DNA of 64,000 bases from positions 1,886,001 through 1,950,000 of the forward strand of contig NZ_CP011971.1 of NCBI RefSeq assembly GCF_001579945.1. Direction: 5' to 3'. A program made the translations under genes and the position numbers. The stretch's first letter is position 1. Each line of letters begins with the position of its first letter. This DNA is from Steroidobacter denitrificans. Lineage in GTDB: Bacteria; Pseudomonadota; Gammaproteobacteria; Steroidobacterales; Steroidobacteraceae. Positions 29,021-45,078 of the stretch are shown one piece after another. The notes beneath the pieces were generated by a model. It was not told the origin of the DNA, ran no database searches, and was given only the letters and a program-made list of their open reading frames with translations.

Positions 29021-29078
29021 TGGCGGAGACGGTGAGATTCTAACTCACAGACCCTGTAAAGGGTCGCCTGTTTTCAAG
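29021..29078 (-). pseudogene. 3' half of the disrupted host tRNA-Ser(UGA) gene
   Basis: On the minus strand this holds the second half of a class II tRNA: anticodon 3' stem ACAGG, a variable arm GACCC-TTTACA-GGGTC, T stem GTGAG/CTCAC, acceptor CGTCTCC, discriminator G and CCA. By itself it cannot fold into a tRNA: its left neighbour (29079 onward) gives no matching acceptor or anticodon stem. The matching 5' half lies at 45038-45078; joined, the acceptor pairs GGAGATG/CGTCTCC and the anticodon stem pairs CCTGT/ACAGG. The T loop reads TTAGAAT instead of TTCGAAT, possibly decay after disruption. Confidence 0.85.
29070..29078. other. Attachment core GTTTTCAAG, left end of element A
   Basis: The 9-bp core is the anticodon loop plus two stem bases of tRNA-Ser(UGA), read on the opposite strand. 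The same 9-mer closes element A at 34021-34029 and element B at 45038-45046, and also lies in the two intact tRNA-Ser genes. Left of it the sequence is host tRNA; right of it (GGCTGTACC) it is element A. Confidence 0.8.
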
Positions 29079-29251
29079 GGCTGTACCTATTGGGCCACGC
29101 TCCAATACGGCGAATACAGCGCCACAATCGGTTCAACCAGCTCCAGGTTGCACCCATACCGGGACTCGGAAGTTTCGACTTCCAAGCATCCGGGTACGTG
29201 TCGCCTACAGTTCTCGCCTTCGGCTCTGCCATTCCAGTCTCTGGAGCACGT

Positions 29252-29282
29252 TTGCCAATTTACGTATTGTACGTATAATACG
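29252..29282 (+). promoter_or_regulatory. Promoter and operator palindrome of the Phd/PemK pair
   Basis: A good promoter is visible: -35 TTGCCA (29252-29257), 16-bp spacer, -10 TATAAT (29274-29279), 31 nt ahead of the antitoxin ATG. A nearly perfect 20-bp palindrome CGTATTGTACGTATAATACG (29263-29282) overlaps the -10. Autorepression by the antitoxin or toxin-antitoxin complex at such a site is usual for this class. Confidence 0.65.
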
Positions 29283-29309
29283 GTGATTCTCCTACAGAGG
29301 AATTTAGAC

Positions 29310-29564
29310 ATGGCTCAAGCAAGCGCTCTGGAGTTTCAGCGCCGCTTTGGCGAATTCCAGCACCAGGCCCAACGGGAACCCGTGGAAATCACACGGCACG
29401 GCCGCCGGGAATTCGTGCTCATGTCGGCCGACCACTACGATTGGCTGGTCGCGGCCGCCAAGCGCACCCACCACGCCTCCGAATCACCGAATGTCGTACT
29501 CAACGCCATCGAACGAGCGGAGATGGCCCCTCAGCACGCGACGCTTGACGAACTACTGAAATAA
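29310..29564 (+). CDS. Phd/YefM-family antitoxin
   Basis: An 84-aa protein starting MAQASALEFQRRFGEFQHQA behind AGAGGAA. The N-terminal part, with PVEITRHGRREFVLMSADHY, has the Phd/YefM DNA-binding fold pattern; the C-terminal about 30 residues should be the toxin-neutralising segment. It is followed 11 nt later by the toxin gene. The palindrome over its promoter fits autoregulation. Confidence 0.85.
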   Translation: MAQASALEFQRRFGEFQHQAQREPVEITRHGRREFVLMSADHYDWLVAAAKRTHHASESPNVVLNAIERAEMAPQHATLDELLK

Positions 29565-29575
29565 TCGCTGCCGCA

Positions 29576-30004
29576 ATGACCATTCCCGAACCCTCCCCGG
29601 GACTGGTGGTTCGCTACGACTACCTGTGGTCCCGAGAAGCGGCAGCAGGACGCATACAAGGAAAGGAGCGCCCCGCCTGCCTCGTCGTGGCGAGCGACAG
29701 TGATACGAAACCGCGCTTCGTGGTTCTGCTGCCGATCACACACTCACCGCCTCTTGGAGATACCGTAGCCGTTGAGATTCCGGCGAAGGTCCGGAAGGCC
29801 ATCGGCTTGGACGATGCGCCAAGCTGGATCGTAGTCTCGGAGTACAACGTCGATGAGTGGCCCAATGCCGGCCTGGCGCCACTACCCGGCAGGCCCGACC
29901 TCTACGCGTACGGATTCATTCCTCCGGGTCTGTTCGCGACGATTAAGGCCCGGCTGGTGGCCTTGGCGCGAGAGAAGAAGAGCGAAGCAGTGAACCGCAC
30001 CTGA
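29576..30004 (+). CDS. PemK/MazF-like toxin
   Basis: A 142-aa protein whose N-terminus PGLVVRYDYLWSREAAAG and KERPACLVVASDSD match the start of PemK/MazF-type RNases (a beta-barrel containing a conserved Arg-Pro), followed by VVLLPITHSPP. It follows a Phd-type antitoxin. MazF-like toxins cut mRNA and halt growth. Family assignment is from motif and context. The 237 nt downstream (30005-30241) hold no gene I can support. Confidence 0.78.
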   Translation: MTIPEPSPGLVVRYDYLWSREAAAGRIQGKERPACLVVASDSDTKPRFVVLLPITHSPPLGDTVAVEIPAKVRKAIGLDDAPSWIVVSEYNVDEWPNAGLAPLPGRPDLYAYGFIPPGLFATIKARLVALAREKKSEAVNRT

Positions 30005-30241
30005 CAAGTGAGGGGCTGAACGGCGGCCAGGCACGCATCAGAACCCGAACTGCCCGATCCGGCAGATGTCACCCACCGATACAGACCGCGCATACCGTTG
30101 ACCTCCGATGGTCGGTACGGGCTCACGTCATGAGCACACTGAGCGACTCAAAACGATAAGTAATAGTTGCTGGGCCGACTGTATGGGGATAGCCACATGC
30201 GCGCATACTGCAATGAGCGCGCGGGAATAGAGCTTGATGAG

Positions 30242-30954
30242 CTAGCCAGTCGAACTATCGTTGGGTTTATCGGTGGCGTAGAGGTTGCTGTCGAATTCGG
30301 CAACCGCGCATTCCATACGCTCCATTTGCTTCTGCATTATTCGCATGAAGATATCGATGTCGCCGCCCACATTAAGTTCTCGACGTAATTCCACCAGCAA
30401 ACGAATCTGTAGCTCACTTAGGGTTTTTATTTCTGGCATCAGATCCTTCATATACTGGCGGTGAAGGGCATTCATTTGATCCCAGAACGCAGAGCGCTCG
30501 TCCGCCGCTTCCTTCGATACCTTGCTCGCAAATTCAAATGAGCGATTAAACCGTTCGAACTGCGCGGAATTTCGCTGTCCAGATTCGTTGAACTTCGACA
30601 TCAGAGCGAGTACGCGTTTTATCTCCGATTGCGCGTTCTCATACTGAGCGTTGCTGAGATTAATGTCGGTGCGTAGATTGTGCATCGGCATCACTTTCGC
30701 TATCAGCTTTATCTGCAACTCGCCATACGCCGAGATAACATCGCTAACTAGCTGCACTGTCCCCTGGCTAACGACAAGCTGTAATTGCGCACCCGCCGCC
30801 AGCAAGTTCCGAATGGGCAATTCAGCGTCTGGCTTGCTGAAATCCGCTTGAGGCAAGGCGCCGAAATACGCGAGTCCGCGGACATTGGCGTCTACGGCTT
30901 TCAGATACAACTCTCGGCGCAGGGCGAGCAACCGCTCCTTCGCTTTCTCCGCTG
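30242..30954 (-). pseudogene. Split membrane-anchored coiled-coil protein, 3' part
   Basis: The reading frame from EKAKERLLALRRELYLKAVD to the stop at 30242 (about 235 residues) is helical, charged and unfamiliar. Its true beginning lies on the far side of the IS21 element (33718-33874). Removing the element and one copy of the 4-bp duplication CAGC (GCTG on the + strand, 30951-30954) restores ...LQLDHDTA-EKAKERLL... in frame. Intact, the protein would have one N-terminal membrane helix and a long cytoplasmic or periplasmic helical region. Function unknown. Confidence 0.8.
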
Positions 30955-31331
30955 TGCAGGATTTCCTGTGATTGGACCCCCCTGATTTCCTAGGAATGGG
31001 ACCACCTGATTTCCTGGGAATGGACCCACCCAATTTCCTCGGAATGGGACCACCGGCCGGAGCCGCTTTTGGAGCCCGGCGGCACGCGTTGTTGCGTGCC
31101 GCCGCGGCCTCAGGAGCGAAACGGCGATGTCAACCCAGACGATATCCTTTTCGGGGGTAGCCCCGAGCCCCACCCCGGCGCTCGATCGTGGCGCCAGCGC
31201 CTTCTACGGCGAGCGTCGTTCCGCAATTCACACCCCAGACGCGGGCTTCGGCCCGCTCACACAGCCCAGTCCGCTTATCGTCGTGCATTTGTTCGCACGG
31301 GGAGAGTTGGGTGGCGCGGAGGGAATTGACG

Positions 31332-32870
31332 GTGCAGAGATATGAAGAAATCAAACGACGGCTCGCCGAGGGTCGCAGCGTGCGCGAGATCGCGAGCGCA
31401 TTGCGTTGTTCACGCCGCCTGGTGCGCGAGATCCGCGATGGCGTGCGCGTGACGCATGCTATCGCAGCGAGTCCGGATCCGTTGTGGATGTCGCAGCTGG
31501 ACTGGCCGGTGATCATTCACGATCTGGGACTCGGTCATCCGCTGAAGTTCATCTGGGAGGAAAAAGCGCAGACGCTGACGACGTACTCGAACTTCTGGAA
31601 GCAGTTCTATCGCAAGTTCCCGCAGTGTCGTGACGCCAGCGTCACCGCACGGACGTTCGAGCCCGCCGAGCGGGTTGAAGTCGATTACGCTGGCGAGCCG
31701 ATCGAGTGGTACGAGATCAAGACCGGCGAGATCCACAAAGCCTACGTGTTCGTGTCCGGCTTGGGCTTCAGCCAATTGCTGTTCGCCTGGGCGGCGCAGG
31801 ACATGAAGAGTCGCAACTGGATCGCCAGCCATCGACGCATGTACGCCTATTACGGCGGCGTACCTCACGTCACGGTGCCCGATTGTTTGCGGCAAGGCGT
31901 CGTCAAGTGTCACTTGTACGATCCCGATCTGAATGAAGATTACGCGCACATGGCCGCGCACTTCTCAACCGCGATTGTTCCAGCGCGCGTCAGAAAGCCG
32001 AAGGACAAGGCGATCGTCGAGGGACTCGTAAAAATCCTCGGTCGCTACTTTCGCTTCCGCTTTCGTCACTCGCGATTTACCTCCATTGCCGAGATCAATC
32101 GAGCACTCATGGTATGCCTCGAGCGGATCAATGACCAGCAGCACCGTCGTTTTGGCGTCTCACGTCGCGAGCGCTTCGAGACCATCGAGAAGGCCGCACT
32201 GAAGGCATTGCCGACCACCGAGTACGATGATGGCGAGTGGAAGGAGGCGAAACTCCATCCCGATTGCTTTCTTGCCGTGGAAGGCGATTACTACAGCGCG
32301 CCGCACATCCATCGTCATAAAACGCTACGAATCAAGCTTACCGACAATCAGGTCGAGATCTTCCTGAACTTGGAACGTCTGGCGGTCCATCCACGCTGCC
32401 GCATGAAAACCGGCCAACGCATCAAGATCAAGGAACACTTCCCGCCGAACTCCGATGCCTATTACGAGGCGACACCGCAGCGGTTGCTATCACAGTCGCG
32501 TTTTATCCACGCCGATCTCAACGCGCTCTTCGTCGAATTGTTCAACGAAGACGTCTTTGCGCATATCCGTCGCGCCATGGGCTTGGTCTCGGCTTGTACC
32601 AAAGAGATCAACCTCGTCGGTCACGAACTCGCCAGCGTACGCATCGCCGCGGCGATTGCCGCCATGCGCCGCTATAACCGGATCCGCGTTCCTTACTTCA
32701 AGGACTTGCTCGCTCAGGCGCGTAAACAATCGATGAATCCTCAGGCCGAGCGCGACATCGTGCGCAAGCCCGGCAATCCCATGCTCCGGTACGTCAGTGG
32801 TGCGGCGCTGCAGACCGCCGACGAACCTTCCCTCTCTTGTACTGCGGCCCAGGAGAATCTACCCCTATGA
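31332..32870 (+). CDS. istA: IS21-family transposase IstA
   Basis: From GTG at 31332, behind GGAGGG, the protein is 512 aa. An N-terminal helix-turn-helix (RRLAEGRSVREIASALRCSR) is followed by the DDE integrase core: Asp in VEVDYAGEPIEW, Asp in HVTVPDCLRQGV and Glu in KPKDKAIVEGLVKIL. The C-terminal part contains the beta-barrel-like region around DCFLAVEGDYYSAPH. Its stop overlaps the istB start by 4 nt. A longer reading frame from 31188 lacks a ribosome-binding site. Confidence 0.95.
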   Translation: MQRYEEIKRRLAEGRSVREIASALRCSRRLVREIRDGVRVTHAIAASPDPLWMSQLDWPVIIHDLGLGHPLKFIWEEKAQTLTTYSNFWKQFYRKFPQCRDASVTARTFEPAERVEVDYAGEPIEWYEIKTGEIHKAYVFVSGLGFSQLLFAWAAQDMKSRNWIASHRRMYAYYGGVPHVTVPDCLRQGVVKCHLYDPDLNEDYAHMAAHFSTAIVPARVRKPKDKAIVEGLVKILGRYFRFRFRHSRFTSIAEINRALMVCLERINDQQHRRFGVSRRERFETIEKAALKALPTTEYDDGEWKEAKLHPDCFLAVEGDYYSAPHIHRHKTLRIKLTDNQVEIFLNLERLAVHPRCRMKTGQRIKIKEHFPPNSDAYYEATPQRLLSQSRFIHADLNALFVELFNEDVFAHIRRAMGLVSACTKEINLVGHELASVRIAAAIAAMRRYNRIRVPYFKDLLAQARKQSMNPQAERDIVRKPGNPMLRYVSGAALQTADEPSLSCTAAQENLPL

Positions 32871-33625
32871 GTATTGCTATCGTGAAGAATCAGCTGGCTG
32901 AAATGAAACTGCTCGGCATGCTCGGCGTGTTGGAGAATGCGCTCGCCCAAGCCGCCCGCGATCAGCTCAGTGGCGGCGAACTGCTCAATCAGTTGGTGCA
33001 AGCGGAAGTTGATTACCGCCGGAAGCGAAAAACCGCCAATCGCATCAAAGCCGCCAGGTTCCGTGATCGTCCGGCCTTCGAAGACTTCGACTTCACCGCG
33101 AAACGTTCGATCACCCGCACCCAGATCAAAGAGATCTACAGCCTCGACTGGCTCGAGGACGCGCGGCCACTGATGCTCATTGGGCCGACCGGCGTCGGGA
33201 AGACCTTCATCGCACAGGCTGTCGGACTGCACGCCTGCGCCAACGGAAAATCCGTCATGTTCACCAGCATCACCAAGTGGCTCGAGAATCTCAATCTCGC
33301 ACGCTCCAGCGGCACGTATCTTCGCTATCGTGACAAGCTCGCCAAGTTCGATCTAATCATCTTCGATGAGATGGGCAGTCGCAAACTGACCGCCACTGAG
33401 GCTCAGGACCTATGCGAGATCCTGGAAGAGCGATCGATCAGCAAGTCCGTCGTGTTCACCTCCCAGTTGCCGCTGGCTCACTGGAGCGAGGTGATCGCCG
33501 ATACCGTGATCGCCGATGCTATCCTCGATCGACTGCAGCACTGCGCGCTCACCATCGGGCTCACCGGCGAGAGCTATCGCGGTGTCAAAGCCAAGAAACT
33601 TGCTTCGCGCAAAAAGGACGCGTAA
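32867..33625 (+). CDS. istB: IS21-family helper ATPase IstB
   Basis: A 252-aa DnaC-like AAA+ protein. Walker A is [17 protein letters not shown], Walker B is FDLIIFDEMGSR. IstB assembles on DNA and directs IstA to the target, so it is needed for transposition. It overlaps istA by 4 nt. The reading frame appears intact, so the element could be active. Confidence 0.95.
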   Translation: MSIAIVKNQLAEMKLLGMLGVLENALAQAARDQLSGGELLNQLVQAEVDYRRKRKTANRIKAARFRDRPAFEDFDFTAKRSITRTQIKEIYSLDWLEDARPLMLIGPTGVGKTFIAQAVGLHACANGKSVMFTSITKWLENLNLARSSGTYLRYRDKLAKFDLIIFDEMGSRKLTATEAQDLCEILEERSISKSVVFTSQLPLAHWSEVIADTVIADAILDRLQHCALTIGLTGESYRGVKAKKLASRKKDA

Positions 33626-33713
33626 AAGTCCTCGCCAGCGGCTCCGCCGGCAACCCATCCAAGGTGGGTCCAATCAGAGGAAATCGGCCGGGTCCAATGC
33701 ACGAAATCCTGCA

Positions 33714-33874
33714 GCTGTGTCGTGATCGAGTTGAAGTTTGAGACGCCTCGTTGCGCCGATGTTGGTGGCGACGGCACCCACAATGGTGCCCAATAGGGCG
33801 ATACCTGCGACGACTATTCCGGACCAAATTGCAGGCAAACCCAGAAGCGTTTCGGTGGCAGCAGGTTCAGCCAT
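33714..33874 (-). pseudogene. Split membrane-anchored coiled-coil protein, 5' part
   Basis: Begins MAEPAATETLLGLPAIWSGI behind AAAGGAAA. A membrane helix (WSGIVVAGIALLGTIVGAVA) is followed by NIGATRRLKLQLDHDTA, where IS21 interrupts. The continuation is at 30242-30950. Its start is 41 nt downstream of element A's tRNA-Ser on the same strand, so read-through from the tRNA may transcribe it. Confidence 0.82.
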
Positions 33875-33915
33875 TTCTTATTTCCTTTGGGCTAAAGTTT
33901 TTCGTGTTCTTGGGT

Positions 33916-34006
33916 TGGCGGTGGGGGTGGGATTCGAACCCACGGAAGACGTTGAATCTTCGGTAGTTTTCAAGACTACTGCCTTAAACCACTCGGCCAC
34001 CCCACC
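33916..34006 (-). tRNA. tRNA-Ser(UGA), carried by element A
   Basis: A full class II tRNA with encoded CCA. Acceptor GGTGGGG/CCCCACC is perfect, the anticodon arm is GTAGT-CTTGAAA-ACTAC with anticodon UGA, a long variable arm follows, and the T arm is GTGGG-TTCGAAT-CCCAC. It differs from the host halves and from element B's copy in every stem, so it is not a recent duplicate. It ends 14 nt before the core at 34021. Confidence 0.95.
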
Positions 34007-34020
34007 ACAGCTATATCCTT

Positions 34021-34029
34021 GTTTTCAAG
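34021..34029. other. Attachment core GTTTTCAAG between elements A and B
   Basis: This core lies exactly 14 nt beyond the 5' end of element A's tRNA-Ser, the same spacing as at the right end of element B (45024-45037). To its right begins element B (AATCCCAATCC). It is the expected junction of two tandem insertions at the same site. Confidence 0.78.
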
Positions 34030-34325
34030 AATCCCAATCCACCCACAGACGCATCGTACCACCACGCAAGTGCATGAATCGCGTGAGTGCCAAAGCGTGT
34101 GAAAACGCCGTGAAAACTAGGCTTTCAGGCCCGGGTGCAACTCCCGTTGCAACCGCGCTGGCATGGGGCCTCGCCCTGGGCCTCAAGCCGGCCCGGAGGG
34201 CATCGTCTCAGGGGCTCCGGAGAGCGTTTTCCGGGAGGCCTAGCCCCGGGCCCCTGATGTGGCTAGGGGCTGGGAGGCTCCGTGACGATCCGGGCCGGCG
34301 AGGGTAGCCCCGGGAGCCGGGCACG
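34030..34325. other. Noncoding left end of element B
   Basis: About 300 nt between the core and the terminator. It is rich in GGGCCT and CCGG words and contains no reading frame with a ribosome-binding site or recognisable product. It may hold integrase arm sites; I see no clear repeat of the core. Confidence 0.4.
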
Positions 34326-34362
34326 AAAAAGGCCGGCCCCGTCCACCAGAGCCGGCCTTCGT
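34326..34362 (-). terminator. Rho-independent terminator of the small-gene operon
   Basis: Arms AAGGCCGGC (34329-34337) and GCCGGCCTT (34351-34359) form a 9-bp GC-rich stem. Read on the minus strand it is followed by a T-run (AAAAA on the + strand at 34326-34330). It lies just after the stop of the 34374-34724 gene. Confidence 0.8.
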
Positions 34363-34373
34363 GAACGCCGCAC

Positions 34374-34724: not shown

Positions 34725-34900
34725 AGCGGAGCCCTCAGCGTGAAGATCGGGAGGCGCTGCGCCAGCCGCTCGATCAGGTCGGCGGCCATGCGGTAGCGTT
34801 GCGCGTTGGCCGGCAGCCCGGCGTCCTCGCTCAACTGCGCCGCCTCGTGCAGCAGGGCCGCCATCGCCTGCGCCTCGCAGAACAGACGCGCGGCGCTCAT
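34721..34900 (-). CDS. Small helical protein of unknown function
   Basis: 59 aa starting MSAARLFCEAQAMAALLHEA, overlapping its neighbours by 4 nt on each side. It is predicted to be almost wholly helical and is Ala/Leu-rich. I recognise no family. The tight chain of stop-start overlaps (35285 to 34374) is the main evidence that it is translated. Confidence 0.6.
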   Translation of the reverse strand: MSAARLFCEAQAMAALLHEAAQLSEDAGLPANAQRYRMAADLIERLAQRLPIFTLRAPL

Positions 34901-35790: not shown

Positions 35791-36921
35791 TCAGGTGCCC
35801 GTCAGGTCCACCTTCACCACGCCGCCGGTGTCGTAGACGGCCAGGCCGCCGCGCATCTCGGCGAGCAACGTCACCAGGTTCTTGATGAAGTTGTCCCGGT
35901 CCTCGCTGCTCACCGCGGTCGTCACCGACTGTCGATCCAGTAGCGTGATGCGCCGCGTGTCGAGGATCAGCGCCGTGCCCTCCGCGAGCCCGGCCGCCCG
36001 CGCGACAGGCAGACGCCAGACGCTCGGCGCGGCGGGGTTGCCCCATCCGCCCGCGACGTACTGGCCGTCGCCCGAGTCGGCGCGCTCCGTCTCGAAGTCG
36101 CTCCAGTCCAGCGGGTTGAGCACGACCGCCTGCGCCACGTACCCCGTCGCCCACATCGCGGCGATGGCCTCGCTCAGGCGATCCACCGGGTGCGACTTCG
36201 TGTGCGCGAACACGCTCGCCTGCGGCACCAGCCCGTGGATCTTGTCCGTCGTGCCGTTGCCGTTGATGAGCAGGTCCTCGTACTTGGCCATCACGTCGAT
36301 GTTCAGGATGCCGCTCAGGATGTTCGACAACTGCGTGTTGTCGGCCAGCACCTGTCGGCTCGCGTGGGTCCAGTGCGCGACGGTGGCGATCTTCGTCGTG
36401 ACGAGGTTCGCGTCGAACTCCGTCTCGTTCTTCTGGTCGCCCTCGCTCTGCTGCACGCCGACGTTCGGCGTCCTCGTGAGCTGAACATACTCGTAGCTTT
36501 CGCCGCCGACCGGGGTCGAGGGCAGCAGGTCCACCAGCGTCAGCGGCGCGACGGCCGGGCCGACGGTGGGACCGCGCTGCGGCTGCGTCGGGAAGCCGTT
36601 GGAGCCGCCGCCCTCCGGCAGGTTGACCAGCGCCTTCAGCCGCTTGATCGACATGCCCTTGAGGGCGAAGCTCGCCAGCTTGGAATCGCCGTCGTGCATC
36701 GCCTTCACGCGGGTGGCGAACTCGCCGTCGAACGGGTTGGCGATGCCCGGCGCAGAGAGCCTGCGCCCCGTGCCGCCGTCCGCGACGATCTGTTCGAGCG
36801 CGTCGAGGCGTCCCTTGATCCCGGCGATGAAATTCTCGTCCGTGATACCGGCCGCTTTCAGCTTCGCGGCCAGCGCCTCCTTGACGGCTTCGATGAACTT
36901 CTTGCGTTCTTCGTCGTTCAT
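35791..36921 (-). CDS. HK97-type phage major capsid protein
   Basis: 376 aa. The N-terminal about 100 residues are charged and helical (ERKKFIEAVKEALAAKLKAA, GRLDALEQIVADGG), as in the scaffolding delta domain of HK97-family capsids. Then comes the capsid fold: SYEYVQLTRTPNVGV, a family-typical KIATVAHWTHASRQVLADN, DVMAKYEDLLINGNGT and IHGLVPQA, LNPLDWSDFE, then the C-terminal RDNFIKNLVTLLAEMRGGLA. No maturation protease gene is adjacent. It probably assembles shells or modifies helper-phage capsids; the role is inferred. Confidence 0.85.
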   Translation of the reverse strand: MNDEERKKFIEAVKEALAAKLKAAGITDENFIAGIKGRLDALEQIVADGGTGRRLSAPGIANPFDGEFATRVKAMHDGDSKLASFALKGMSIKRLKALVNLPEGGGSNGFPTQPQRGPTVGPAVAPLTLVDLLPSTPVGGESYEYVQLTRTPNVGVQQSEGDQKNETEFDANLVTTKIATVAHWTHASRQVLADNTQLSNILSGILNIDVMAKYEDLLINGNGTTDKIHGLVPQASVFAHTKSHPVDRLSEAIAAMWATGYVAQAVVLNPLDWSDFETERADSGDGQYVAGGWGNPAAPSVWRLPVARAAGLAEGTALILDTRRITLLDRQSVTTAVSSEDRDNFIKNLVTLLAEMRGGLAVYDTGGVVKVDLTGT

Positions 36922-38683: not shown

Positions 38684-39081
38684 TCATTTCGCCTCCTTCG
38701 GCCTGACGTACACACGCGCGGAAGGCGATTTTTTCCGCCATCCGAGCGCCCTGAAGATCTTTCCGACCCGACCCGCGTTGAACTGCGTGAGCTTCTCCGC
38801 CCCGACGCCAAGCTCCTTGAGCGCCTCTCCGGGGAGCAGCTCGTCCCTGTCCTTCAGGCTTCCGGTCTTGAGCATCACGGACAGCTCGTCGTGCCACGGG
38901 TCTCTGAGCCTGCGACCCTCCGCCTGCTTGGCCGCGAGCGATTCGAGTTCGGAGTCCAGGTGCCAGCGTTCGCCTTGCTTGTAGCGCGCGTGCGCTTCGG
39001 CCCAGAGCTGATCGCGGTCGCGCGTCAGGCGCACGAGGTTCACGCCGCCGCACCTGACAGGCCAGAAGCGCCTGTTGCCGG
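38684..39081 (-). pseudogene. VirE-type primase/helicase, 3' part (after IS3)
   Basis: Encodes the C-terminus of the broken gene: TGNRRFWPVRCGGVNLVRL, then DRDQLWAEAHARYKQGERWH, typical of VirE/D5 proteins (DTGNRRFWP and LWAEA..Y..GE.W), and ends SARVYVRPKEAK. Removing the IS and one CCGG duplication rejoins DDT-GNRRFW in frame with 40346-42048. The last 39-81 nt include the duplicated target CCGG. Confidence 0.88.
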
Positions 39082-39110
39082 TGATCTTGCCTCGATTCGA
39101 CGTACACCAC

Positions 39111-39974
39111 CTATGCAGCCCTGAGACTGGATTCAGCAGCAGCCGGCGTCTGATAGCCGATCGATGAATGCATTCGTTGCAGATTGTAGAAGCCTTCTAT
39201 CCAGTTGACGAGGTCGAGTCGAGCTTGGGCTCGCGTTTCGTAACGCAGTTGATAGACGCGCTCAACTTTCAACGTCTTGAAGAAACTTTCAATTGGGGAG
39301 TTGTCCCAGCAGTTCGCACGCCGACTCATCGACTGAACCATTCGGAAGTCCTTGATCATGTTGCGATATCGGTCGCTTGCGTACGGGCTGCCGCGATCGG
39401 TATGCATGATCAGATCCCCCGCCGGTTTGCGACGCCAATACGCCGAGCGCAGAGCGCTGCACACCAGGTCGGCATTGATGCGATCGCTCATTGAGCAGCC
39501 CACGATGCGCCGGCTGCTCAGATCCATCACCGCAGCCAAGTACAGCCAGCCCTCGCCGGTCGCAACGAACGTGATGTCGGCCACCCACGCCTGGTTGACC
39601 GACCAGCCATCGAATCGACGCTCCAGAACGTTGGCCGCGATCGGCTTGCGATGATTCGAGTCGGTCGTTACACGGTAGGCACGCTTGTAGACCGGCCGTA
39701 GACCCTGGCGGTGCAGGCTCTTGCGCACCCGTTCGTGGCCAACCGTGAGCCCCTGGCTGCGCAGGCCTTCTACGATCCGCGGACGCCCGTAGCTGCGTCC
39801 GCTAGCCGCATGCATCGCCGCCACTCGTGCGTCGAGCGCCGCATTGGCCAGTGTACGTTCGCTCGGCGGGCGGCCACGCCATTGGCAGTAGCCCGAGCGC
39901 GAGACGGCGAGCAGCCGGCACAATCGGCTCACACTGTACTGGTCGCGATGTGCTTCGATCCAGGCGTACCTCAC
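39111..39974 (-). CDS. IS3-family transposase OrfB (DDE integrase domain)
   Basis: 287 aa. After an HTH-like N-terminus (QYSVSRLCRLLAVSRSGYCQ) the DDE catalytic core is clear: Asp in WVADITFVATGEGW, Asp in LIMHTDRGSPYAS and Glu in NCWDNSPIESFFKTLK. In IS3 elements OrfB is normally made as an OrfAB fusion by -1 frameshifting on a run of A; here the A7-G (40004-40010) in the orfA tail is the likely site. Confidence 0.94.
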   Translation of the reverse strand: MRYAWIEAHRDQYSVSRLCRLLAVSRSGYCQWRGRPPSERTLANAALDARVAAMHAASGRSYGRPRIVEGLRSQGLTVGHERVRKSLHRQGLRPVYKRAYRVTTDSNHRKPIAANVLERRFDGWSVNQAWVADITFVATGEGWLYLAAVMDLSSRRIVGCSMSDRINADLVCSALRSAYWRRKPAGDLIMHTDRGSPYASDRYRNMIKDFRMVQSMSRRANCWDNSPIESFFKTLKVERVYQLRYETRAQARLDLVNWIEGFYNLQRMHSSIGYQTPAAAESSLRAA

Positions 39975-40282
39975 CGCGATTCCCTTGCGAAATACGCCGC
40001 CGCTTTTTTTACGATCTCAAGATCTAACTTGGCGTTCGCCAGTTCGCGACGCAACCGGGTGTTCTCAATCTCCAACTCCGACACGGGCCGCTTTACCGGC
40101 GCTGCCCCAGGCTCGCCAAGCGTCCCCGCCTTGCTGCGGCGAACCCAGTTCGTTACCGTGGACTGCGGAATCCCTAAGCGCTTGGCTGCAGGATTACCTC
40201 CGATCGACGCCGCAAGTCGCACCGCTTCGATCTTGAACTCATCCGTATACTGCCGGTTCGACGTGTACTCTTTCTTGCCCAT
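39971..40282 (-). CDS. IS3-family transposase OrfA
   Basis: 103 aa starting MGKKEYTSNRQYTDEFKIEA. The helix-turn-helix is AAKRLGIPQSTVTNWVRRSK, then a leucine-zipper-like segment ELEIENTRLRRELANAKLDL. It ends KKAAAYFARESR, overlapping orfB by 4 nt. The run of seven A in front of this tail is the probable -1 frameshift site. Confidence 0.92.
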   Translation of the reverse strand: MGKKEYTSNRQYTDEFKIEAVRLAASIGGNPAAKRLGIPQSTVTNWVRRSKAGTLGEPGAAPVKRPVSELEIENTRLRRELANAKLDLEIVKKAAAYFARESR

Positions 40283-40345
40283 TTCGTTCTCCCGTTCATC
40301 AGAAAATACCAATAATCTGATGTACGTGAAACCGAGGCAGCGTCA

Positions 40346-42048
40346 CCGGTGTCGTCGATCAGGTATTGGTCCTCGTTGGTCGTGCCGGCGAACACGCACT
40401 GTCGCGGGTACTCGATCTCGAACCTGCCGAACGCTGGCCGGAACCGTTCGACCCGGCGTGTGATGAACGCCTTGACTGTTTCGATCTCGCTCTTTCTGAA
40501 CTGCGCCAGCTCGGGAAGCTCGATGATCCACTTCCCCCTGATGTGGTCGGCGGCGTCCTTGCTCGACAGGTCGCCGGGAAGCGAGTCGGAGAAGTGCTCG
40601 TCTCCGGCGAGCGCACGCAGCGCGCTACTTTTCTTCTTGCCTTGCCCGCCTTCGAGCACCAGCGCGTAGTCGGCCTGGCATCCCGGCTCGATGACCCGAG
40701 CTATCGCCGCGATCATCCACTTCGCCCCGACCGCCCGCAGGTACGCCTCGGGCGCACCCTTCGCCTGAAGGTACGTGGTCAGCCAGTCGTCTAGCCTCGG
40801 CTTGCCGTCCCACTCCAACCGCTTCAGGTAGTCGCGGATCGGGTGGAACGACCAGCGCGAGCGGGCCCATGTGCCCAGCGCCCCGTCCACCTTGTCGCGC
40901 CCGATGCGCGGCATGTAGTGGCGCTGCACGTACTGCTGCATGGCGACCGAGTCCTCGTCGCGCCACTGTCGCGGGTACTCGTCGCTAGCGACTACGGCGG
41001 TGTCGCCGGGCACCGGGCGCACGAGCACGCGGCGCATGCTCAGTTCGTCATAGCGGACCATGCCGGCGAGCGACGAGTCGTGCTCCACGATCAGGCGCAC
41101 GTTCTCCTCGTCGGCGATGATCGATCCGCCGTCGCCGCGCCGTAGCTGCGACCTCACGGCTCCCTGCGGGAACTTCACCTTCGCGCTGGCTAACATCCTC
41201 GGGATGTTGCCGAGCGTCTTTTCCCAACTGCTCTTGCGTTTCGGGTTGTCCTGCCCCTCGCTCTCGAACATCAGCGCGCGCAGCCGGCGCAGGGCGTCCT
41301 TCTCCAGCTCGCCGTTGCAGATCGCCCGCGCGGTTAGCTGCACCATCGGTCCGTGAAAGCTCTCGCCGCTCTTGATGAGCCGTTCCAGCTCCCCGTCGCT
41401 GGCGCGCTGGATGATCGCCTTCGGTTCGTCGCTATCGTCGTCGTCCGTTTCGAGGTCGCCTTGCGCAGCGCCCAAGGCTTCCGCGATCTCATCGATGCCG
41501 AACCTGTTGCCGGTCCACTCGACCATGTGAACGCCGAAGGGCTCGCCGTGCTCGCGCTTGTTGTTCACGCCGCAGTGGATGCGGGCGTACCTGGCCGCGT
41601 TGTTGCCGCTCTTGTCGCCGAGCCCCAGGGCTACGACCTTCTCCAACACGGGTCGGACCTGCGCGGCCGTGGCCCCTTCCGTCAGGAAGTACCACCACTG
41701 ATAGTTGCCTTCGCTGGTCTGGACGCGCGCCGTGGGCTTGCCTAGCGTCCTGAACAGCTTTGCCGCATCGCCCTTGGTGGTCGGATCATCGACCACGATG
41801 GCGACGCACGCGATCATGTTCTCGATGGTCCTGCCCTTGGCTTTCGGCGGGAACGCGGCTGTCGAGACGTAGTGGTTCAGGCGCGGCGAGAACTCGCGGT
41901 CATCGTCCACGCGGATGGCGCGCCCCTGCCACGACGGGTCGTCGGCGTCGGGGAACGAGGTGATCCACGCCCGCGCTTCGCCCCCGACAGGTCCGACCAG
42001 CTCGCGCAGGAACTCCATCGGCGAGATGACCTTGCCGGCCTTGCTCAT
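40346..42048 (-). pseudogene. VirE-type primase/helicase, 5' part (broken by IS3)
   Basis: About 568 codons from MSKAGKVISPMEFLREL to the IS. A primase-like N-terminal region (NYQWWYFLTEGATAAQVRPV, NAARYARIHCGVNNK) is followed by the PF05272-like helicase: DYLKRLEWDGKPRLDDWLTT, Walker A LVLEGGQGKKKSSALRALA, and ELAQFRKSEIETVKAFITRR, then FAGTTNEDQYLIDDTG where the IS3 cuts. The 5' part overlaps the zinc-ribbon gene by 4 nt. Without the C-terminus the protein is probably non-functional, so element B could not replicate by itself. Confidence 0.9.
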
Positions 42049-42299
42049 CGCGCATCGAACCACTTGATCAAGATCCGGTGCCTCTCGATCCTGATCGTGA
42101 GTCGTGCGCCGCACTCGCCGCATTGGAGGTGCGCGCCAGACAGGATTCCGGCGTCGTTTTCAGAGTCCGATTCCTTGACCGCAAACGCCTGGTGCTTCTT
42201 CACGTCGGTCGAGCCGCACGTCGGGCACAGCAGCGGGACCACCGTTCGCCCCTCCGCCGGCTCCACGAATCTGATCGCTGTATTATCTGCTCCGCTCAC
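42045..42299 (-). CDS. Small zinc-ribbon protein
   Basis: 84 aa with CPTCGSTD and CGECGARL, two CxxC pairs likely to hold zinc. It overlaps the HNH gene by 17 nt and the primase gene by 4 nt. Zinc ribbons of this kind are frequent near phage replication genes; function unknown. Confidence 0.65.
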   Translation of the reverse strand: MSGADNTAIRFVEPAEGRTVVPLLCPTCGSTDVKKHQAFAVKESDSENDAGILSGAHLQCGECGARLTIRIERHRILIKWFDAR

Positions 42300-43005
42300 T
42301 TCTGTTCTCCCCGGATGGTTGTGGGCGCTTCATCAGTTCGATGTCTTCGGGTTCCGGCGTTGTCGCGTCGGGACCCGTTTCTTTTTGGGCGCACAGCCGC
42401 TCGATCTTCTCGAACCGCTCGCGCATCCAGTCGGGAAGGTCGGCCATGAACTCGGGATCTCGCGCCAGCCGTTTAGCCTCGCGAATCTCTGCCTGCCGTA
42501 GCTGTCTGAGGGCGTCGTGATCACGCTCGACTCTTGGCGTCGGAGTGGCGAGCGCCTTGCGTCCCTCGCAGGTCCGCGCAAGCCTGTTGACGCGGGCGTG
42601 CATCGCGCGAACCTGCCATGCCAACTGCGCCGCGATGAGGACTCTCACTCTCGGCCGAAAGTCGTGCAGGTCGTCGAGCATGTTGAACATCGTCGTCGGG
42701 TCGATGATGGCGCACCGACCGTAGATGAACGCCCACTCGCCTTCGTTGTGAAGCACGGTCCTGTGCTCTTCTTCGATCTGGTCTTCGGCCCATGCGTACT
42801 GTTCTTTCTCGCCCGCGCGGTCCTTGCGCTGGTGACACTTCGCGCAGGCCCACACGGTCCACTCGCCGCCAGCACTGGCCGGGACAGGGAAGTGATCGCG
42901 CTCGAATCCCGCGTCGTCGGAGTAAGGCGCATCGCAGTAGAAGCAGCACCCGTCGCTCGGCGGCTTGAACCTGCGAACGCATTCAAGGATGTCCACGATG
43001 ATCAC
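42283..43005 (-). CDS. HNH-like endonuclease domain protein
   Basis: 240 aa. Residues 18-65 hold CCFYCDAPYSDDAGFERDHF and WACAKCHQRKDRAG, i.e. paired Cys around an ERDH core, the pattern of an HNH/Zn-finger nuclease. The rest is helical and charged. HNH proteins often stimulate terminase cutting in phages. Overlaps the upstream gene by 4 nt. Confidence 0.72.
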   Translation of the reverse strand: MIIVDILECVRRFKPPSDGCCFYCDAPYSDDAGFERDHFPVPASAGGEWTVWACAKCHQRKDRAGEKEQYAWAEDQIEEEHRTVLHNEGEWAFIYGRCAIIDPTTMFNMLDDLHDFRPRVRVLIAAQLAWQVRAMHARVNRLARTCEGRKALATPTPRVERDHDALRQLRQAEIREAKRLARDPEFMADLPDWMRERFEKIERLCAQKETGPDATTPEPEDIELMKRPQPSGENRSERSR

Positions 43006-43268
43006 GCCGCAGGCTCGTCAACGGTGGCCTTGCGCGCCTCGTTCGCGGCGACCTTGAAGTTCTGCACGCGCTCGGCCTTGCTCTTGACCCACCTGATGTA
43101 GGGATCGGCGAACACGACCAGCTCGCGGCCGACGCGCGAGACCGCGCCGCAGCTCATCAGCTCCTTGCGGTAGACGCGCAGCACGCGGCGGGCGCGAAGG
43201 GAGTCGTTGGGATATACGTCGTCTGGCCAGTCGGCCAGCGACCACGATCTGAACTTGTTCTCGCTCAT
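43002..43268 (-). CDS. Small basic protein, possible excisionase-like DNA-binding protein
   Basis: 88 aa from MSENKFRSWSLADWPDDVYP; an upstream in-frame start is less favoured. It contains RVLRVYRKELMSCGAVSRVG followed by ELVVFADPYIRWVK, a possible winged-helix arrangement. It is the first gene after the operator dyads at 43327, so it may lead the replication operon. Family assignment is uncertain. Confidence 0.5.
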   Translation of the reverse strand: MSENKFRSWSLADWPDDVYPNDSLRARRVLRVYRKELMSCGAVSRVGRELVVFADPYIRWVKSKAERVQNFKVAANEARKATVDEPAA

Positions 43269-43300
43269 CTGTGCGCTCCGGTATCCGGGACGCACAGTTA

Positions 43301-43368
43301 TTTATACTGACGTGAGCGGGTTTGGAATCAACCAGCCAGTTGATGCAGGGATCAACTAGGGAGTTGAT
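43301..43368 (-). promoter_or_regulatory. Twin operator dyads and promoter of the element B replication operon
   Basis: Two 18-bp dyads, ATCAAC-N6-GTTGAT, lie at 43327-43344 and 43351-43368, 24 bp apart. A -10-like TATAAA (43301-43306, minus strand) with TTGATT as possible -35 inside the first dyad (spacer 19) points at the 43268 start. The second dyad overlaps the regulator's stop codon. This is a likely repressor switch for the operon. Confidence 0.6.
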
Positions 43369-43811
43369 GCGTCGGGATCAGCCAGTTGCCCGGTCGTCGC
43401 GGCGCGGACGAGCGCGATGAACTCTAGCCGCGTGGCTACTCCGAACTCGGCGCGCAGCATCCTGAGAACCTCACCGTACTTCTTCTCGTACTTCCATAGC
43501 GCCTGCGTCGAAACGTCGAGGATCTCGATCATCTCTTTCCTCGTGCCCGGTGAGCGCCCTTGCATGATGAGCGCCTGCGCGTCCTTCTTCGGCATCGTCA
43601 AGAACTCCGCGACGAAGTAGCGTTGCGGCGTGATACGCTTATCGGATACCGCTGCGACCAGTCCGCCGTTGTCCTCGGTGAACTTTTTCACCGCTGCGGA
43701 GATGAGCGCGGATGCGAGTACGCCGTTCGCGAGGGTCGTGTCGTAGAGACCTCTCGGGATCGTCAGGCCCATCGAAGTCATGAACTCGTGCAGGGCGTCG
43801 GTGCGTTTCAT
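43356..43811 (-). CDS. Putative transcriptional regulator of element B
   Basis: 151 aa starting MKRTDALHEFMTSMGLTIPR, overlapping int by 4 nt. The C-terminal region, with QGRSPGTRKEMIEILDVSTQ and VATRLEFIALVRA, resembles a LuxR-type helix-turn-helix. Two dyads at its 3' end are candidate operators. It may be the element's repressor or activator; the identity of the domain is tentative. Confidence 0.6.
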   Translation of the reverse strand: MKRTDALHEFMTSMGLTIPRGLYDTTLANGVLASALISAAVKKFTEDNGGLVAAVSDKRITPQRYFVAEFLTMPKKDAQALIMQGRSPGTRKEMIEILDVSTQALWKYEKKYGEVLRMLRAEFGVATRLEFIALVRAATTGQLADPDASTP

Positions 43812-44875
43812 CGCTTCAACTTCCCTTCGAGTTTGGAGTGGGCCGCGAGCGGCGCGCCCTGCACGAGGTGCGCGTAGCGCATCGTCACGCTCGGGCTCTT
43901 GTGGCCGAGCACGCTGCCGATCTCAAGCAGCGACGCCCCGCCTTGCGCGAGGTAGCTGGCGCAGGTGTGCCGCAGGTCGTGGAACCGGAAGTTCTTGAGA
44001 CTGATCCTCGACATCAGCGCCTTCCACGTGTGAGCGAGGTAGCTGTCCGAGTACGGGAACACGCGCTCGCCGGGATCGTGCTTTCGACCTAGCGCCTTCA
44101 GCGCCCGCACCGCCGGCCCCGGCAGGTGTACCGCCCGTGGAGTCCCGTTCTTGGTCTCAAGGACGACGATGCGTTGCCCTTCGAGGTCCACGTCCTTCCA
44201 GCACAGGCGCAGCAGCTCGCCGCGTCTGACGCCCGTGCCTAGCGCGACGAGCACGGCGGCGTTGAACCACGCAGGCTCTTTCGACACCGCGTTGAGAACC
44301 TTCTTCAGCTCGTCGTCGTCGAGGAACCGCGCACGCCCCGGCGGCTCGGTCAGCATCACCTTGCCGGGCCATGCGCTCTCGTTGGCGATGAGCCCGGCGT
44401 GTCGCCCCCAGTTCCAGCACGCGCGCATCGCGGAGAGGTGACGGTTCACCGTGGCCGGAGCGCGCCCCGGCAGCAGGCGGTCCCGCGCATCGCGAACCTT
44501 CGTCACGCCGAAGCCCATCACGCGCTCGTTGCCGTACTCGTTCATCCACCACGAGATGAGAAGTTCCAGGCCGTCGTAGCTCTTCAAGCCGAGCGTCTTG
44601 GGATCGTTCAGGAAGTTCTCGCACAGCGTGCGGATCGTCATGCGGGTGGTGTCCTCCCGACCGGCTCCGCGATCCCTCTGGCGCTTCAGCTCCGCCTCTG
44701 TCGATGCAGCCCAGACCTTGGCCTCCTTCTCGTCGCGGAATGCCTTGCTGACAGGTTTGAAACCCTTGATCCGGACGAGGGCGACGACGCTGAGCGATCC
44801 GTCGTCGAGGCGGCGCTTCTGGAACGATGGCACGTTTGACTCCACAGGTGGCGCGTAGGAGCACGCAGGAGCCAA
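43808..44875 (-). CDS. int: Tyrosine recombinase integrase of element B
   Basis: 355 aa. The catalytic set is visible: Arg in GTGVRRGELLRL (about residues 217-218), HDLRHTCAS with His299 and Arg302, LGHKSP with His325, and Tyr334 in TMRYAHL. The N-terminal half is the usual arm-binding and core-binding part (VNRHLSAMRACWNWGRHAG). It starts 57 nt after the tRNA-Ser on the same strand, so it may be transcribed together with the tRNA. It presumably recombines at GTTTTCAAG. Confidence 0.95.
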   Translation of the reverse strand: MAPACSYAPPVESNVPSFQKRRLDDGSLSVVALVRIKGFKPVSKAFRDEKEAKVWAASTEAELKRQRDRGAGREDTTRMTIRTLCENFLNDPKTLGLKSYDGLELLISWWMNEYGNERVMGFGVTKVRDARDRLLPGRAPATVNRHLSAMRACWNWGRHAGLIANESAWPGKVMLTEPPGRARFLDDDELKKVLNAVSKEPAWFNAAVLVALGTGVRRGELLRLCWKDVDLEGQRIVVLETKNGTPRAVHLPGPAVRALKALGRKHDPGERVFPYSDSYLAHTWKALMSRISLKNFRFHDLRHTCASYLAQGGASLLEIGSVLGHKSPSVTMRYAHLVQGAPLAAHSKLEGKLKR

Positions 44876-44932
44876 TCTACTGCGAAACTGGCACCCCAGT
44901 GAAACCGGGAGTGCAACTACGGCGAGTGTGGC

Positions 44933-45023
44933 TGGCGGAGAGGGTGGGATTCGAACCCACGTAACCCTTTGAAGGTTAAACGGTTTTCAAGACCGTCGCA
45001 TTCAACCGCTCTGCCACCTCTCC
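44933..45023 (-). tRNA. tRNA-Ser(UGA), carried by element B
   Basis: Class II tRNA with encoded CCA. Acceptor GGAGAGG/CCTCTCC, anticodon arm ACGGT-CTTGAAA-ACCGT (anticodon UGA), a variable arm with TTTAACCTTCAAAGGGTTA and a T arm GTGGG-TTCGAAT-CCCAC. Its 5' end is 14 nt from the core at 45038. The host's 5' half and its promoter lie just upstream, so this gene would be transcribed from the original host tRNA promoter. Confidence 0.95.
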
Positions 45024-45037
45024 GCACTCAAACTCAA

Positions 45038-45078
45038 GTTTTCAAGACAGGTGCCTTAAACCACTCGGCCACATCTCC
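45038..45078 (-). pseudogene. 5' half of the disrupted host tRNA-Ser(UGA) gene, with attachment core
   Basis: On the minus strand: acceptor GGAGATG, D arm, and the anticodon 5' stem CCTGT, then CTTGAAAAC (the core GTTTTCAAG, 45038-45046, is its complement). Left of the core the sequence changes to element B (45024-45037). It pairs with the 3' half at 29021-29069. The sequence upstream (45079-45122) has a -10-like TAGAAT (45117-45122) that could be the tRNA promoter. Confidence 0.85.

What the first reader, a model, noticed from the sequence alone, without database searches (positions are those of the whole stretch)
29021..45078. Host tRNA-Ser(UGA) gene split in its anticodon loop, halves 16 kb apart
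Seen directly: 29021-29069 holds a tRNA 3' half ending in CCA and 45038-45078 a 5' half. Joined, they give a perfect acceptor (GGAGATG/CGTCTCC with one G-U), anticodon stem CCTGT/ACAGG with loop CTTGAAA, variable stem GACCC/GGGTC and T stem GTGAG/CTCAC. Neither half can fold with its present neighbours. The break is at GTTTTCAAG, the anticodon loop. Integrases usually leave the tRNA intact by using its 3' end; here the gene is sacrificed.
Basis: partly seen in the sequence, partly recalled or inferred. Interest (0 to 1): 0.92.

Follow-up and report, generated by a model that had tools for sequence, protein, structure and literature searches.

The report
Mobile elements replacing a split tRNA
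Two back-to-back mobile DNA elements have cut a bacterium's only gene for one serine tRNA in half, but each carries a complete foreign copy of that gene, placed where the old gene's own start signal could read it.

Summary
The split is real. The halves (29021-29069 and 45038-45078, minus strand) join at a 9-bp core into a tRNA-Ser(UGA); several relatives carry an intact tRNA-Ser(UGA) beside yccA. So the gene is replaced rather than lost. The insert reads as two tandem elements: 11.0 kb with integrase and capsid genes, and 5.0 kb without an integrase. The seven closest integrase relatives sit at intact tRNA-Ser(UGA) genes. In three siblings whose far end was found (G352, G278, L110) an attP-borne 3' half rebuilds the tRNA. 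Here the whole gene lies between the core and motif-inferred P' arm sites, where the host promoter could drive it (inferred). The displaced 3' half lacks C56, so the switch may be irreversible. Another genome of the class (G1126) shows the same layout at the same locus with a very different integrase (23% identity). Closest known: tRNA-dependent lysogeny of actinobacteriophages (2024). I call this a new variant: replacement tRNA nested in attP, in tandem, outside Actinobacteria.

The parts
45038..45078 (-). H5: 5' half of the host tRNA-Ser(UGA), ending in the core
   Evidence: found again by pattern
29021..29069 (-). H3: 3' half of the host tRNA-Ser(UGA), T-loop TTAGAAT (C56 lost)
45038..45046 (-). 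attachment core 1, CTTGAAAAC on the minus strand (H5 / element 1 junction)
45024..45037 (-). 14-nt spacer between core 1 and T1
44933..45023 (-). T1: complete tRNA-Ser(UGA) carried by element 1, between core 1 and the P' arm motifs
   Evidence: ARAGORN; Rfam tRNA 62.9 bits; own acceptor stem predicted to form behind H5
44899..44916 (-). P' arm-type motif pair TTGCAC / TTTCAC (second imperfect), 12 nt apart, 130 and 142 nt from core 1
   Evidence: in 8 of 8 siblings examined a pair begins 97-118 nt after the core
43808..44875 (-). tyrosine integrase of element 1 (355 aa)
   Evidence: Pfam PF00589 3.1e-29; PHROG integrase
43002..43295 (-). small element-1 ORF (97 aa); resembles by eye the 101-aa ORF at the same place in sibling element L110
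   Evidence: ORF lists; no Pfam or PHROG match
42283..43005 (-). HNH-like protein, element 1
   Evidence: Pfam HNH_5 3.3e-5, below the curated cut-off
40174..42123 (-). VapE-like helicase/primase, its C-terminal part separated by an IS3-like insertion
   Evidence: Pfam; PHROG; remaining C-terminal part at 38684-39043
39111..40312 (-). IS3-like transposase pair inside the helicase gene
35791..36921 (-). HK97-type major capsid protein, element 1
   Evidence: Pfam PF05065; PHROG major head
34136..34152 (-). P arm-type motif pair TTGCA, 111 and 123 nt before core 2
   Evidence: the script printed 110 and 122 because its slice left out one base; G352 112/124, L110 111/122
34021..34029 (-). core 2: junction of element 1 and element 2
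33916..34006 (-). T2: complete tRNA-Ser(UGA) carried by element 2, 14 nt behind core 2
31188..33625 (+). IS21-like istA/istB inside element 2
29576..30004 (+). PemK-like toxin gene in element 2 (weak match)
   Evidence: Pfam 4.1e-4, below cut-off
29070..29078 (-). core 3: element 2 / H3 junction
45115..45120 (-). TAGAAT, candidate -10 box of the host tRNA promoter, 36 nt before H5
   Evidence: By eye; the strict promoter scan found no site here
45377..46048 (+). yccA (Bax1-I family), neighbour of the tRNA-Ser(UGA) gene
   Evidence: Pfam; 67-76% identical in 11 of 13 same-genus relatives

Best explanation
Two integrative elements stand in tandem in the anticodon loop of the host's only tRNA-Ser(UGA) gene. 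Shown by sequence: a 9-bp core at three junctions; a tyrosine integrase in element 1; intact empty sites in several relatives; a complete tRNA-Ser(UGA) 14 nt inside each element's leading core; no other complete tRNA-Ser(UGA) found in the genome. Shown by motif only: in element 1 the tRNA gene lies inside attP, between the core and the P' arm sites. Inferred: integration cuts the host gene and in the same step puts the element's gene directly downstream of the host tRNA promoter. The promoter then makes a leader (dead 5' half plus 14 nt) followed by T1, and tRNA processing frees T1. This replaces the usual device, in which attP carries only a 3' half that completes the host's 5' half. Element 2, in which no integrase gene was found, probably stands as an att-flanked remnant beside element 1 (accretion). 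Because the host's 3' half has since lost C56, even precise excision might not give a working gene, so the cell may now depend on the elements for reading UCA codons.
For: Halves, cores and the joined tRNA. Intact carried tRNAs. Serine tRNA complement GGA, GCT, CGA plus only T1 and T2 for UGA; a 5'-half pattern with up to 2 mismatches finds exactly three places in the genome (H5, T1, T2). Empty site: 9 of 16 relatives' loci; two-sided synteny in 2 of 6. Element 1 ends: TTGCA pairs in the P arm at positions matching siblings G352 and L110, and a shared ATTCATGCACTT ending 38 nt before the core in G352 and element 1 (counted by eye). Ordinary siblings: the 7 relatives with at least 44% identity all sit at an intact tRNA-Ser(UGA); of 52 non-own matches 29 loci were fetched, 26 of these have a tRNA nearby, and 0 of 26 show a core copy of 9 nt or more in the 120 nt before it; the displaced 3' half was found in G352, G278 and L110. 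Over all 232 loci held at that point, 5 of 139 distinct tRNAs had such a copy within 80 nt: the window's two, L192, L193 and L041. T1 acceptor pair probabilities 0.89-1.0 in the H5-spacer-T1 transcript. C56 loss. Independent complete case G1126 at the same locus: 5' half, core, 17 nt, complete tRNA-Ser(UGA), 8.9-kb element, an integrase 23% identical to this one over 238 aa, core, 3' half; joined halves fold as tRNA-Ser and the half contexts alone do not; by pattern the carried gene is the only complete one; a TTGACA-16-TAGTAT site stands before the 5' half and no other plus-strand site lies between it and the carried gene.
Against: No expression data. The strict promoter scan finds no sigma-70 site before H5 or T2 in this window, so promoter use rests on position, a by-eye TAGAAT and the analogy with G1126. 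Arm sites are read from motifs only. The P' arm pair of element 1 has one imperfect site (TTTCAC) and, measured from the core actually used, lies farther (130 nt) than in any of the 8 siblings (97-118); among these, L203 uses another motif (GTACC) and L201 has an imperfect first copy. Element 2 shows no arm pair of this integrase (left end searched, right end judged by eye), so its origin and the accretion step are less certain. In the predicted transcript three leader bases pair with T1's 3' tail and the canonical D stem is not in the minimum-energy fold. C56 loss lowers the odds that the joined host gene works but does not prove it dead. 7 of 16 relatives' loci show no tRNA-Ser(UGA) near yccA. 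No far 3' half was found for G173 and G341, where only 6.5 and 2.0 kb were fetched up to the contig start. Only 1 of 246, 2 of 369 and 2 of 398 sampled genomes (overlapping samples, own genome counted in each) show the layout for this tRNA.
Confidence: 0.85

Rival explanations
1. Ordinary half-restoring tRNA integration: T1 is simply the host 5' half rejoined to an attP-borne 3' half.
For: Siblings of this integrase do exactly this (G352, G278, L110).
Against: H5 stands separately, its core 55 nt upstream of T1's own core, and T1 is complete with a different 5' half (80% identical over 41 nt).
Confidence: 0.03
2. The halves are a working split tRNA joined in trans, as in some archaea.
For: The joined halves fold as a tRNA.
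Against: The 30-nt flanks at the break show no special pairing (79% of 1000 shuffled pairs are as stable or more so); H3 lacks C56; complete genes exist.
Confidence: 0.01
3. The layout arose by local tandem duplication of tRNA genes followed by decay, not by integration.
For: Duplicated 5' halves with nearly the same sequence as the full gene are seen in L192, and a tRNA-Asn array with decayed copies in L235.
Against: In the window, T1 and T2 differ from the joined host gene (73% and 71% identity), the breaks fall exactly at the core, the two halves are 16 kb apart with an integrase and arm motifs between, and G1126 shows both ends.
Confidence: 0.04
4. One single element with two tRNAs rather than two elements in tandem.
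For: Only one integrase gene was found in the insert and only one set of arm motifs is visible.
Against: A third core with element 1's P-arm geometry lies at 34021, followed by its own 14-nt spacer and tRNA.
Confidence: 0.12
5. T1 and T2 use their own promoters, and their place next to the core is an accident.
For: In the mycobacteriophage Fionnbharth the tRNA lies 2.8 kb from the integrase gene and the paper reports its own promoter.
Against: Only 14 nt separate core and tRNA in both elements and in L234, 17 in G1126, 13 in L192; the strict scan found no promoter between in the two window cases and G1126, though it also missed the host promoter in the window.
Confidence: 0.15

Closest known systems
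tRNA-dependent lysogeny of actinobacteriophages (Fionnbharth, LeBron, Mollymur, Gaia; Guerrero-Bustamante and Hatfull 2024, PMC10865867)
   Same: Tyrosine integrase, short core (8-17 bp in the paper's table) in a host tRNA, host tRNA not rebuilt, element carries a complete tRNA of the same isotype, and related integrases exist that do rebuild the tRNA (seen: abstract, sections 6, 9, 10 and passages).
   Different: Different hosts. In Fionnbharth the tRNA is 2.8 kb from the integrase gene; LeBron has none annotated within 2.5 kb of it. In Mollymur a 9-nt core copy lies 170 nt before the tRNA, by eye with an arm-like repeat between. Here the tRNA starts 14 nt from the core, before the P' arm motifs. 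Dependence was shown by experiment there, not here. Not every phage in the paper's table was checked.
Sinorhizobium meliloti prophages like Mesorhizobium phage Lo5R7ANS (PMC11476347, passages) and L. johnsonii Lj965 (mentioned in PMC10865867)
   Same: Prophage inactivates a host tRNA and carries a same-isotype tRNA; in S. meliloti it is closer to other species' genes.
   Different: In the Lo5R7ANS record the tRNA is 1.4 kb past the integrase gene and no copy of 9 nt or more of its anticodon region lies near it; in the Lj965 record the tRNAs are over 11 kb from the integrase gene.
Ordinary tRNA-anticodon-loop genomic islands (Islander, PMC4383910, passages)
   Same: Same sub-site, same kind of integrase; the siblings whose far end was found belong here.
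   Different: There attP carries a tRNA fragment that rebuilds the gene; here it carries the whole gene.
Accretion of att-flanked, integrase-less elements (CIMEs)
   Same: Element 2 has cores at both ends, no integrase gene found, and stands beside an integrase-bearing element.
   Different: No mobilisation shown; arm sites of element 2 not recognised. The concept is recalled; the paper search was seen as a listing only.

Membership tests
tRNA-dependent lysogeny | Short common core; host tRNA not rebuilt at attL or attR | tested here: met
   9-bp core; no tRNA call across either junction except the carried T1
[quoted passage not shown]
   T1 and T2 both tRNA-Ser(UGA)
tRNA-dependent lysogeny | Broken host tRNA is otherwise non-redundant | tested here: met
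   No other complete tRNA-Ser(UGA) found in the genome
tRNA-dependent lysogeny | Survival of integrants requires the element's tRNA | not testable with these tools
   Needs genetics
tRNA-dependent lysogeny | Element is a temperate phage | tested here: inconclusive
   Capsid and helicase families but no terminase, portal or tail among the 18 ORFs of the insert scanned with PHROGs
Half-restoring tRNA island | attP fragment completes the host tRNA | tested here: not met
   H5 is not completed; T1 is a separate full gene
CIME (element 2) | att sites at both ends, no integrase gene, adjacent to an integrase-bearing element | tested here: met
   Cores at 34021 and 29070; no integrase among the four element-2 ORFs scanned, and the own-genome search with element 1's integrase finds no match there
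CIME (element 2) | Mobilised by the neighbour's integrase | not testable with these tools
   Arm motifs of element 2 not recognised
Phage satellite | Small integrated element with few structural genes that depends on a helper phage | tested here: inconclusive
   11.0 kb with integrase, helicase and capsid; no helper known
Trans-spliced split tRNA | Complementary flanking sequences at the break | tested here: not met
   Duplex no better than shuffles

The most novel reading that the evidence does not exclude
Integrative elements with only distantly related integrases have independently moved a whole replacement tRNA gene into attP, within about 8-17 nt of the crossover core, so that integration itself captures the host tRNA promoter. 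Repeated rounds swap an essential tRNA gene for foreign versions, and decay of the displaced half makes the swap permanent. The locus beside yccA is a hot spot for such tRNA gene turnover in this class of bacteria (G000 twice, G1126, probably G732).
Probability: 0.6. Interest if true: 0.72.

Novelty: new variant of a known kind. Interest (0 to 1): 0.62.

Why it matters
It extends tRNA-dependent integration, described for actinobacteriophages in 2024, to a gammaproteobacterial setting and to a small satellite-like element, and it shows a layout that would make the dependence automatic: the replacement gene cannot be separated from the crossover site and can borrow the host promoter. It offers a concrete route by which essential tRNA genes are exchanged between species and by which a cell may become bound to a mobile element. 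Tools that look for islands by a rebuilt tRNA plus a displaced fragment could misplace such elements by about 55 nt or miss them (inference).

Tried and rejected
Rejected readings: simple loss of the tRNA (two complete copies exist); trans-splicing; ordinary half restoration. AhpD as ancestral neighbour: among the 13 other genus genomes no match lies near yccA; in G001 and G011 it is on the same contig about 49 and 57 kb away, in the others on other contigs or absent, so fragmentary assemblies leave some room. L193 (viral contig with a T7-like RNA polymerase by eye; core 23 nt before a tRNA-Ser, no 5' half) is kept only as possible chance; L235 (tRNA-Asn array, no integrase seen among its long ORFs) and L041 (9-nt repeat, no half) were rejected. 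L192 (prophage contig, Bacteroidota by eye, with two 5' halves before a complete tRNA-Ser and an integrase) is not counted as proven: no far 3' half was found in the 41.3-kb contig. G732 has a decayed 5' half, core, 8 nt and a complete tRNA-Ser(UGA) at the yccA locus, but its contig ends 2.6 kb on, so an element cannot be seen. Patterns for Lys(TTT), Leu(CAA) and Arg(CCT) in viral contigs found nothing; Leu(TAA) found only L234, in two forms of the pattern. Four further records with relatives of the Fionnbharth integrase (Nicholas, Hurricane, ClubL, LilDestine) have no tRNA annotated within 2.5 kb of it; whether they use tRNA-dependent lysogeny was not checked. Integrase searches of phage and plasmid records found no match of 60% identity or more. 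Shifted-join control: ARAGORN is too lenient to fix the join point. Helical phasing of arm distances was looked at and not used. The script ended with an error on the closing summary line after printing all rows. In one search at most 5 candidates per genome were scored. Not in print: searches (listings, apart from the papers named) showed me no whole tRNA gene nested inside attP, but the library lacks most subscription papers, including Williams 2002.

Full report
What was claimed and what is there. The finding reports a tRNA-Ser(UGA) split in its anticodon loop, the halves 16 kb apart. Both halves are present on the minus strand: the 5' half H5 at 45078-45038 and the 3' half H3 at 29069-29021. 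Joined at the shared 9-mer CTTGAAAAC they are called as one tRNA-Ser(tga) of 90 nt; the right flank alone gives no call and the left flank only a separate intact gene. Either half joined to random stretches of the window is called in 7 of 2000 and 12 of 2000 trials; joins shifted by up to 20 nt are still called in 125 of 441, so the caller does not fix the join point.

ARAGORN and Rfam both find two complete tRNA-Ser(UGA) genes inside the interval: T1 at 44933-45023 and T2 at 33916-34006, both on the minus strand. The core 9-mer occurs five times in the window: at 45038 (end of H5), 44983 (anticodon loop of T1), 34021, 33966 (anticodon loop of T2) and 29070 (start of H3). The distance between the leading core and the anticodon core is 55 nt in both cases, with 14 nt between core and tRNA. 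Reading along the minus strand the order is: H5, core, 14 nt, T1, integrase, element 1, core, 14 nt, T2, element 2, core, H3. Core-to-core lengths are 11,017 and 4,951 bp, 15,968 in all.

The genome. The window lies in a single-contig genome of 3,467,246 bases with 45 tRNA matches. I fetched the nine other matches long enough to have a long variable arm; they include serine tRNAs GGA, GCT and CGA but no UGA. A pattern for the tRNA-Ser(UGA) 5' half with up to two mismatches finds exactly three places: H5, T1 and T2. By the usual wobble rules (established knowledge) only the UGA tRNA reads UCA, so T1 or T2 should be essential.

The empty site. The neighbour yccA was sought in 30 genomes, own included. 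Of 19 relatives' loci fetched I scanned 16, leaving out three weak matches. Of these 16, 9 have an intact tRNA-Ser(UGA) in the fetched flank: 6 of 11 same-genus loci and 3 of 5 more distant ones; 7 of the 9 have the window's divergent layout, 2 (G007, G013) have the tRNA in the other orientation; 7 of 16 have none there. On the other side, the histidine-phosphatase gene at 24.9-25.6 kb of the window has a homologue in the flank of G006 and G013 (77% and 69% identity), 2 of 6 loci tested.

The 3' half has decayed. H3 reads TTAGAAT in the T-loop. All 27 distinct complete tRNA-Ser(UGA) sequences among the fetched loci, T1 and T2 included, keep C56 (26 TTCGAAT, one TTCAAAT). C56 pairs with G19 in the tertiary core (established knowledge), so the joined host gene is probably impaired and the host may depend on the elements for good. 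This last step is inference.

Element 1 and its att site. The integrase (355 aa) matches Pfam PF00589. Relatives were sought in 396 genomes of the order at E 1e-30, at most five candidates per genome being scored: 46 genomes match, own included, with 52 non-own matches. The 7 relatives with at least 44% identity all sit next to an intact tRNA-Ser(UGA). Of the 29 non-own loci fetched, 26 have a tRNA nearby and 0 of 26 have a core copy of 9 nt or more in the 120 nt before it. Over all 232 loci then held, 5 of 139 distinct tRNAs have such a copy within 80 nt: the window's two, L192 and L193 (fetched for that pattern) and L041 (no half, rejected). The displaced host 3' half was found at the far end in L110 (tRNA-Leu), G352 and G278 (tRNA-Ser), not in G173 and G341, where only 6.5 and 2.0 kb were fetched up to the contig start. 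So siblings of this integrase rebuild the tRNA from an attP-borne 3' half where this could be seen. Paired arm-type motifs (TTGCA, about 12 nt apart) are visible. In the P arm they lie 124/112 (G352), 122/111 (L110) and 123/111 (element 1, counted from core 34021; the script printed 122/110 because its slice left out one base) nt before the core, and G352 and element 1 share ATTCATGCACTT ending 38 nt before the core (by eye). In the P' arm a pair begins 97-118 nt after the core in 8 of 8 siblings examined (GTACC motif in L203, imperfect first copy in L201); in element 1 it begins 75 nt after T1's own anticodon core but 130 nt after the core at 45038 that was actually used, and its second copy is imperfect. 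By these motifs the complete tRNA gene sits inside attP, between core and P' arm. Other genes are a VapE-like helicase broken by an IS3-like insertion, an HNH-like protein and an HK97-type capsid protein, which suggests a phage-satellite-like element; no terminase, portal or tail was seen among the 18 ORFs scanned with PHROGs.

Element 2. It has T2, an IS21-like istA/istB pair, a small unknown gene and a weak PemK match, but no integrase was found and no arm pair of this family (left end searched, right end by eye). I read it as an att-flanked remnant beside element 1. Whether element 1 or element 2 came first cannot be told; either order gives this arrangement. The strict scan shows no promoter for T2.

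How it probably works. Integration at the anticodon loop separates the host promoter and 5' half from the 3' half, and in the same step puts T1 14 nt behind the 5' half. In the predicted transcript H5-spacer-T1 the T1 acceptor stem forms with its own 5' strand (pair probabilities 0.89-1.0) and not with that of H5 (0.0 for all seven pairs); anticodon, variable and T stems also form, while the canonical D stem is not in the minimum-energy fold and three leader bases pair with T1's 3' tail. A TAGAAT box stands 36 nt before H5 (by eye), but the strict scan finds no promoter. Promoter capture is therefore an inference here.

Is it a one-off? A pattern for core, short gap and complete tRNA-Ser(UGA) 5' half was run on 246 order, 369 class and 398 phylum genomes (samples overlap; own genome counted in each): 1, 2 and 2 genomes match; the reversed control pattern matched none. 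G1126, of another family of the same class, is a complete independent case at the same yccA locus: a 5' half at 60895-60935, 17 nt, a complete tRNA-Ser(UGA) at 60953-61040, an 8.9-kb element with a DNA methylase gene and, at its far end, an integrase 23% identical to this one over 238 aa, then core and a 3' half; the joined halves are called as tRNA-Ser and the half contexts alone are not. By pattern its only complete tRNA-Ser(UGA) is the carried one, and a TTGACA-16-TAGTAT site lies before the 5' half. G732 has a decayed 5' half, core, 8 nt and a complete, different tRNA-Ser(UGA) at the same locus, while a congener (G769) has a single intact gene; its contig ends soon after. Among viral contigs, L234 shows core, 14 nt, a complete tRNA-Leu(UAA) and an integrase, with no 5' half before the core, as expected of an unintegrated phage, and L192 a prophage contig with two 5' halves before a complete tRNA-Ser and an integrase.

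What is known. tRNA-dependent lysogeny (PMC10865867; abstract, sections 6, 9, 10 and passages seen) has the same logic: short core, no rebuilt tRNA, same-isotype phage tRNA, shown essential by experiment. The authors name Lj965 as a possible case outside Actinobacteria, and a Sinorhizobium paper (PMC11476347, passages) reports two prophages that inactivate and replace tRNA-Leu(UAG). In the records I checked, the tRNA is not nested in attP as here: Fionnbharth 2.8 kb from the integrase gene, LeBron none annotated within 2.5 kb, Lo5R7ANS 1.4 kb past the integrase gene with no copy of 9 nt or more of its anticodon region near, Lj965 over 11 kb. Mollymur comes closest: a 9-nt core copy 170 nt before its tRNA, in the same orientation. 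Not every phage of the paper's table was checked. So the principle is known, and the nested, probably promoter-capturing, tandem form outside Actinobacteria is a new variant as far as these searches go.

Noticed in passing
window 38684-42123: The VapE-like helicase gene of element 1 is interrupted by an IS3-like transposase pair (39111-40312).
   Followed up: partly
window 30960-31054: Three direct copies of a repeat spaced 24 nt beside the IS21-like genes; possibly its terminal repeats. IS boundaries not mapped.
   Followed up: no
window 29311-30004: A Phd-like antitoxin ORF (by eye) followed by a PemK-like toxin gene (weak Pfam match) in element 2.
   Followed up: no
L192 10082-10300: Prophage contig (Bacteroidota by eye) with two successive tRNA-Ser 5' halves, each with a palindromic insert in the D-loop, before a complete tRNA-Ser(UGA) and an integrase.
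   Followed up: partly
L235 5134-5800: tRNA-Asn array with repeated decayed 5' portions upstream of complete genes, no integrase seen.
   Followed up: no
L233 / G732 C45:114480-114620: Decayed tRNA-Ser 5' half next to a complete tRNA-Ser(UGA) unlike that of a congener, at the yccA locus; contig ends before any far junction.
   Followed up: partly
L276 1876-2129: Gordonia phage Mollymur: a 9-nt copy of the anticodon-loop core lies 170 nt 5' of its tRNA in the same orientation, so host-promoter read-through is conceivable there too.
   Followed up: partly
L273 6251-7897: The G1126 element carries a DNA methylase gene and a convergent unknown gene (no Pfam match) that may be its restriction partner by position only.
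   Followed up: no
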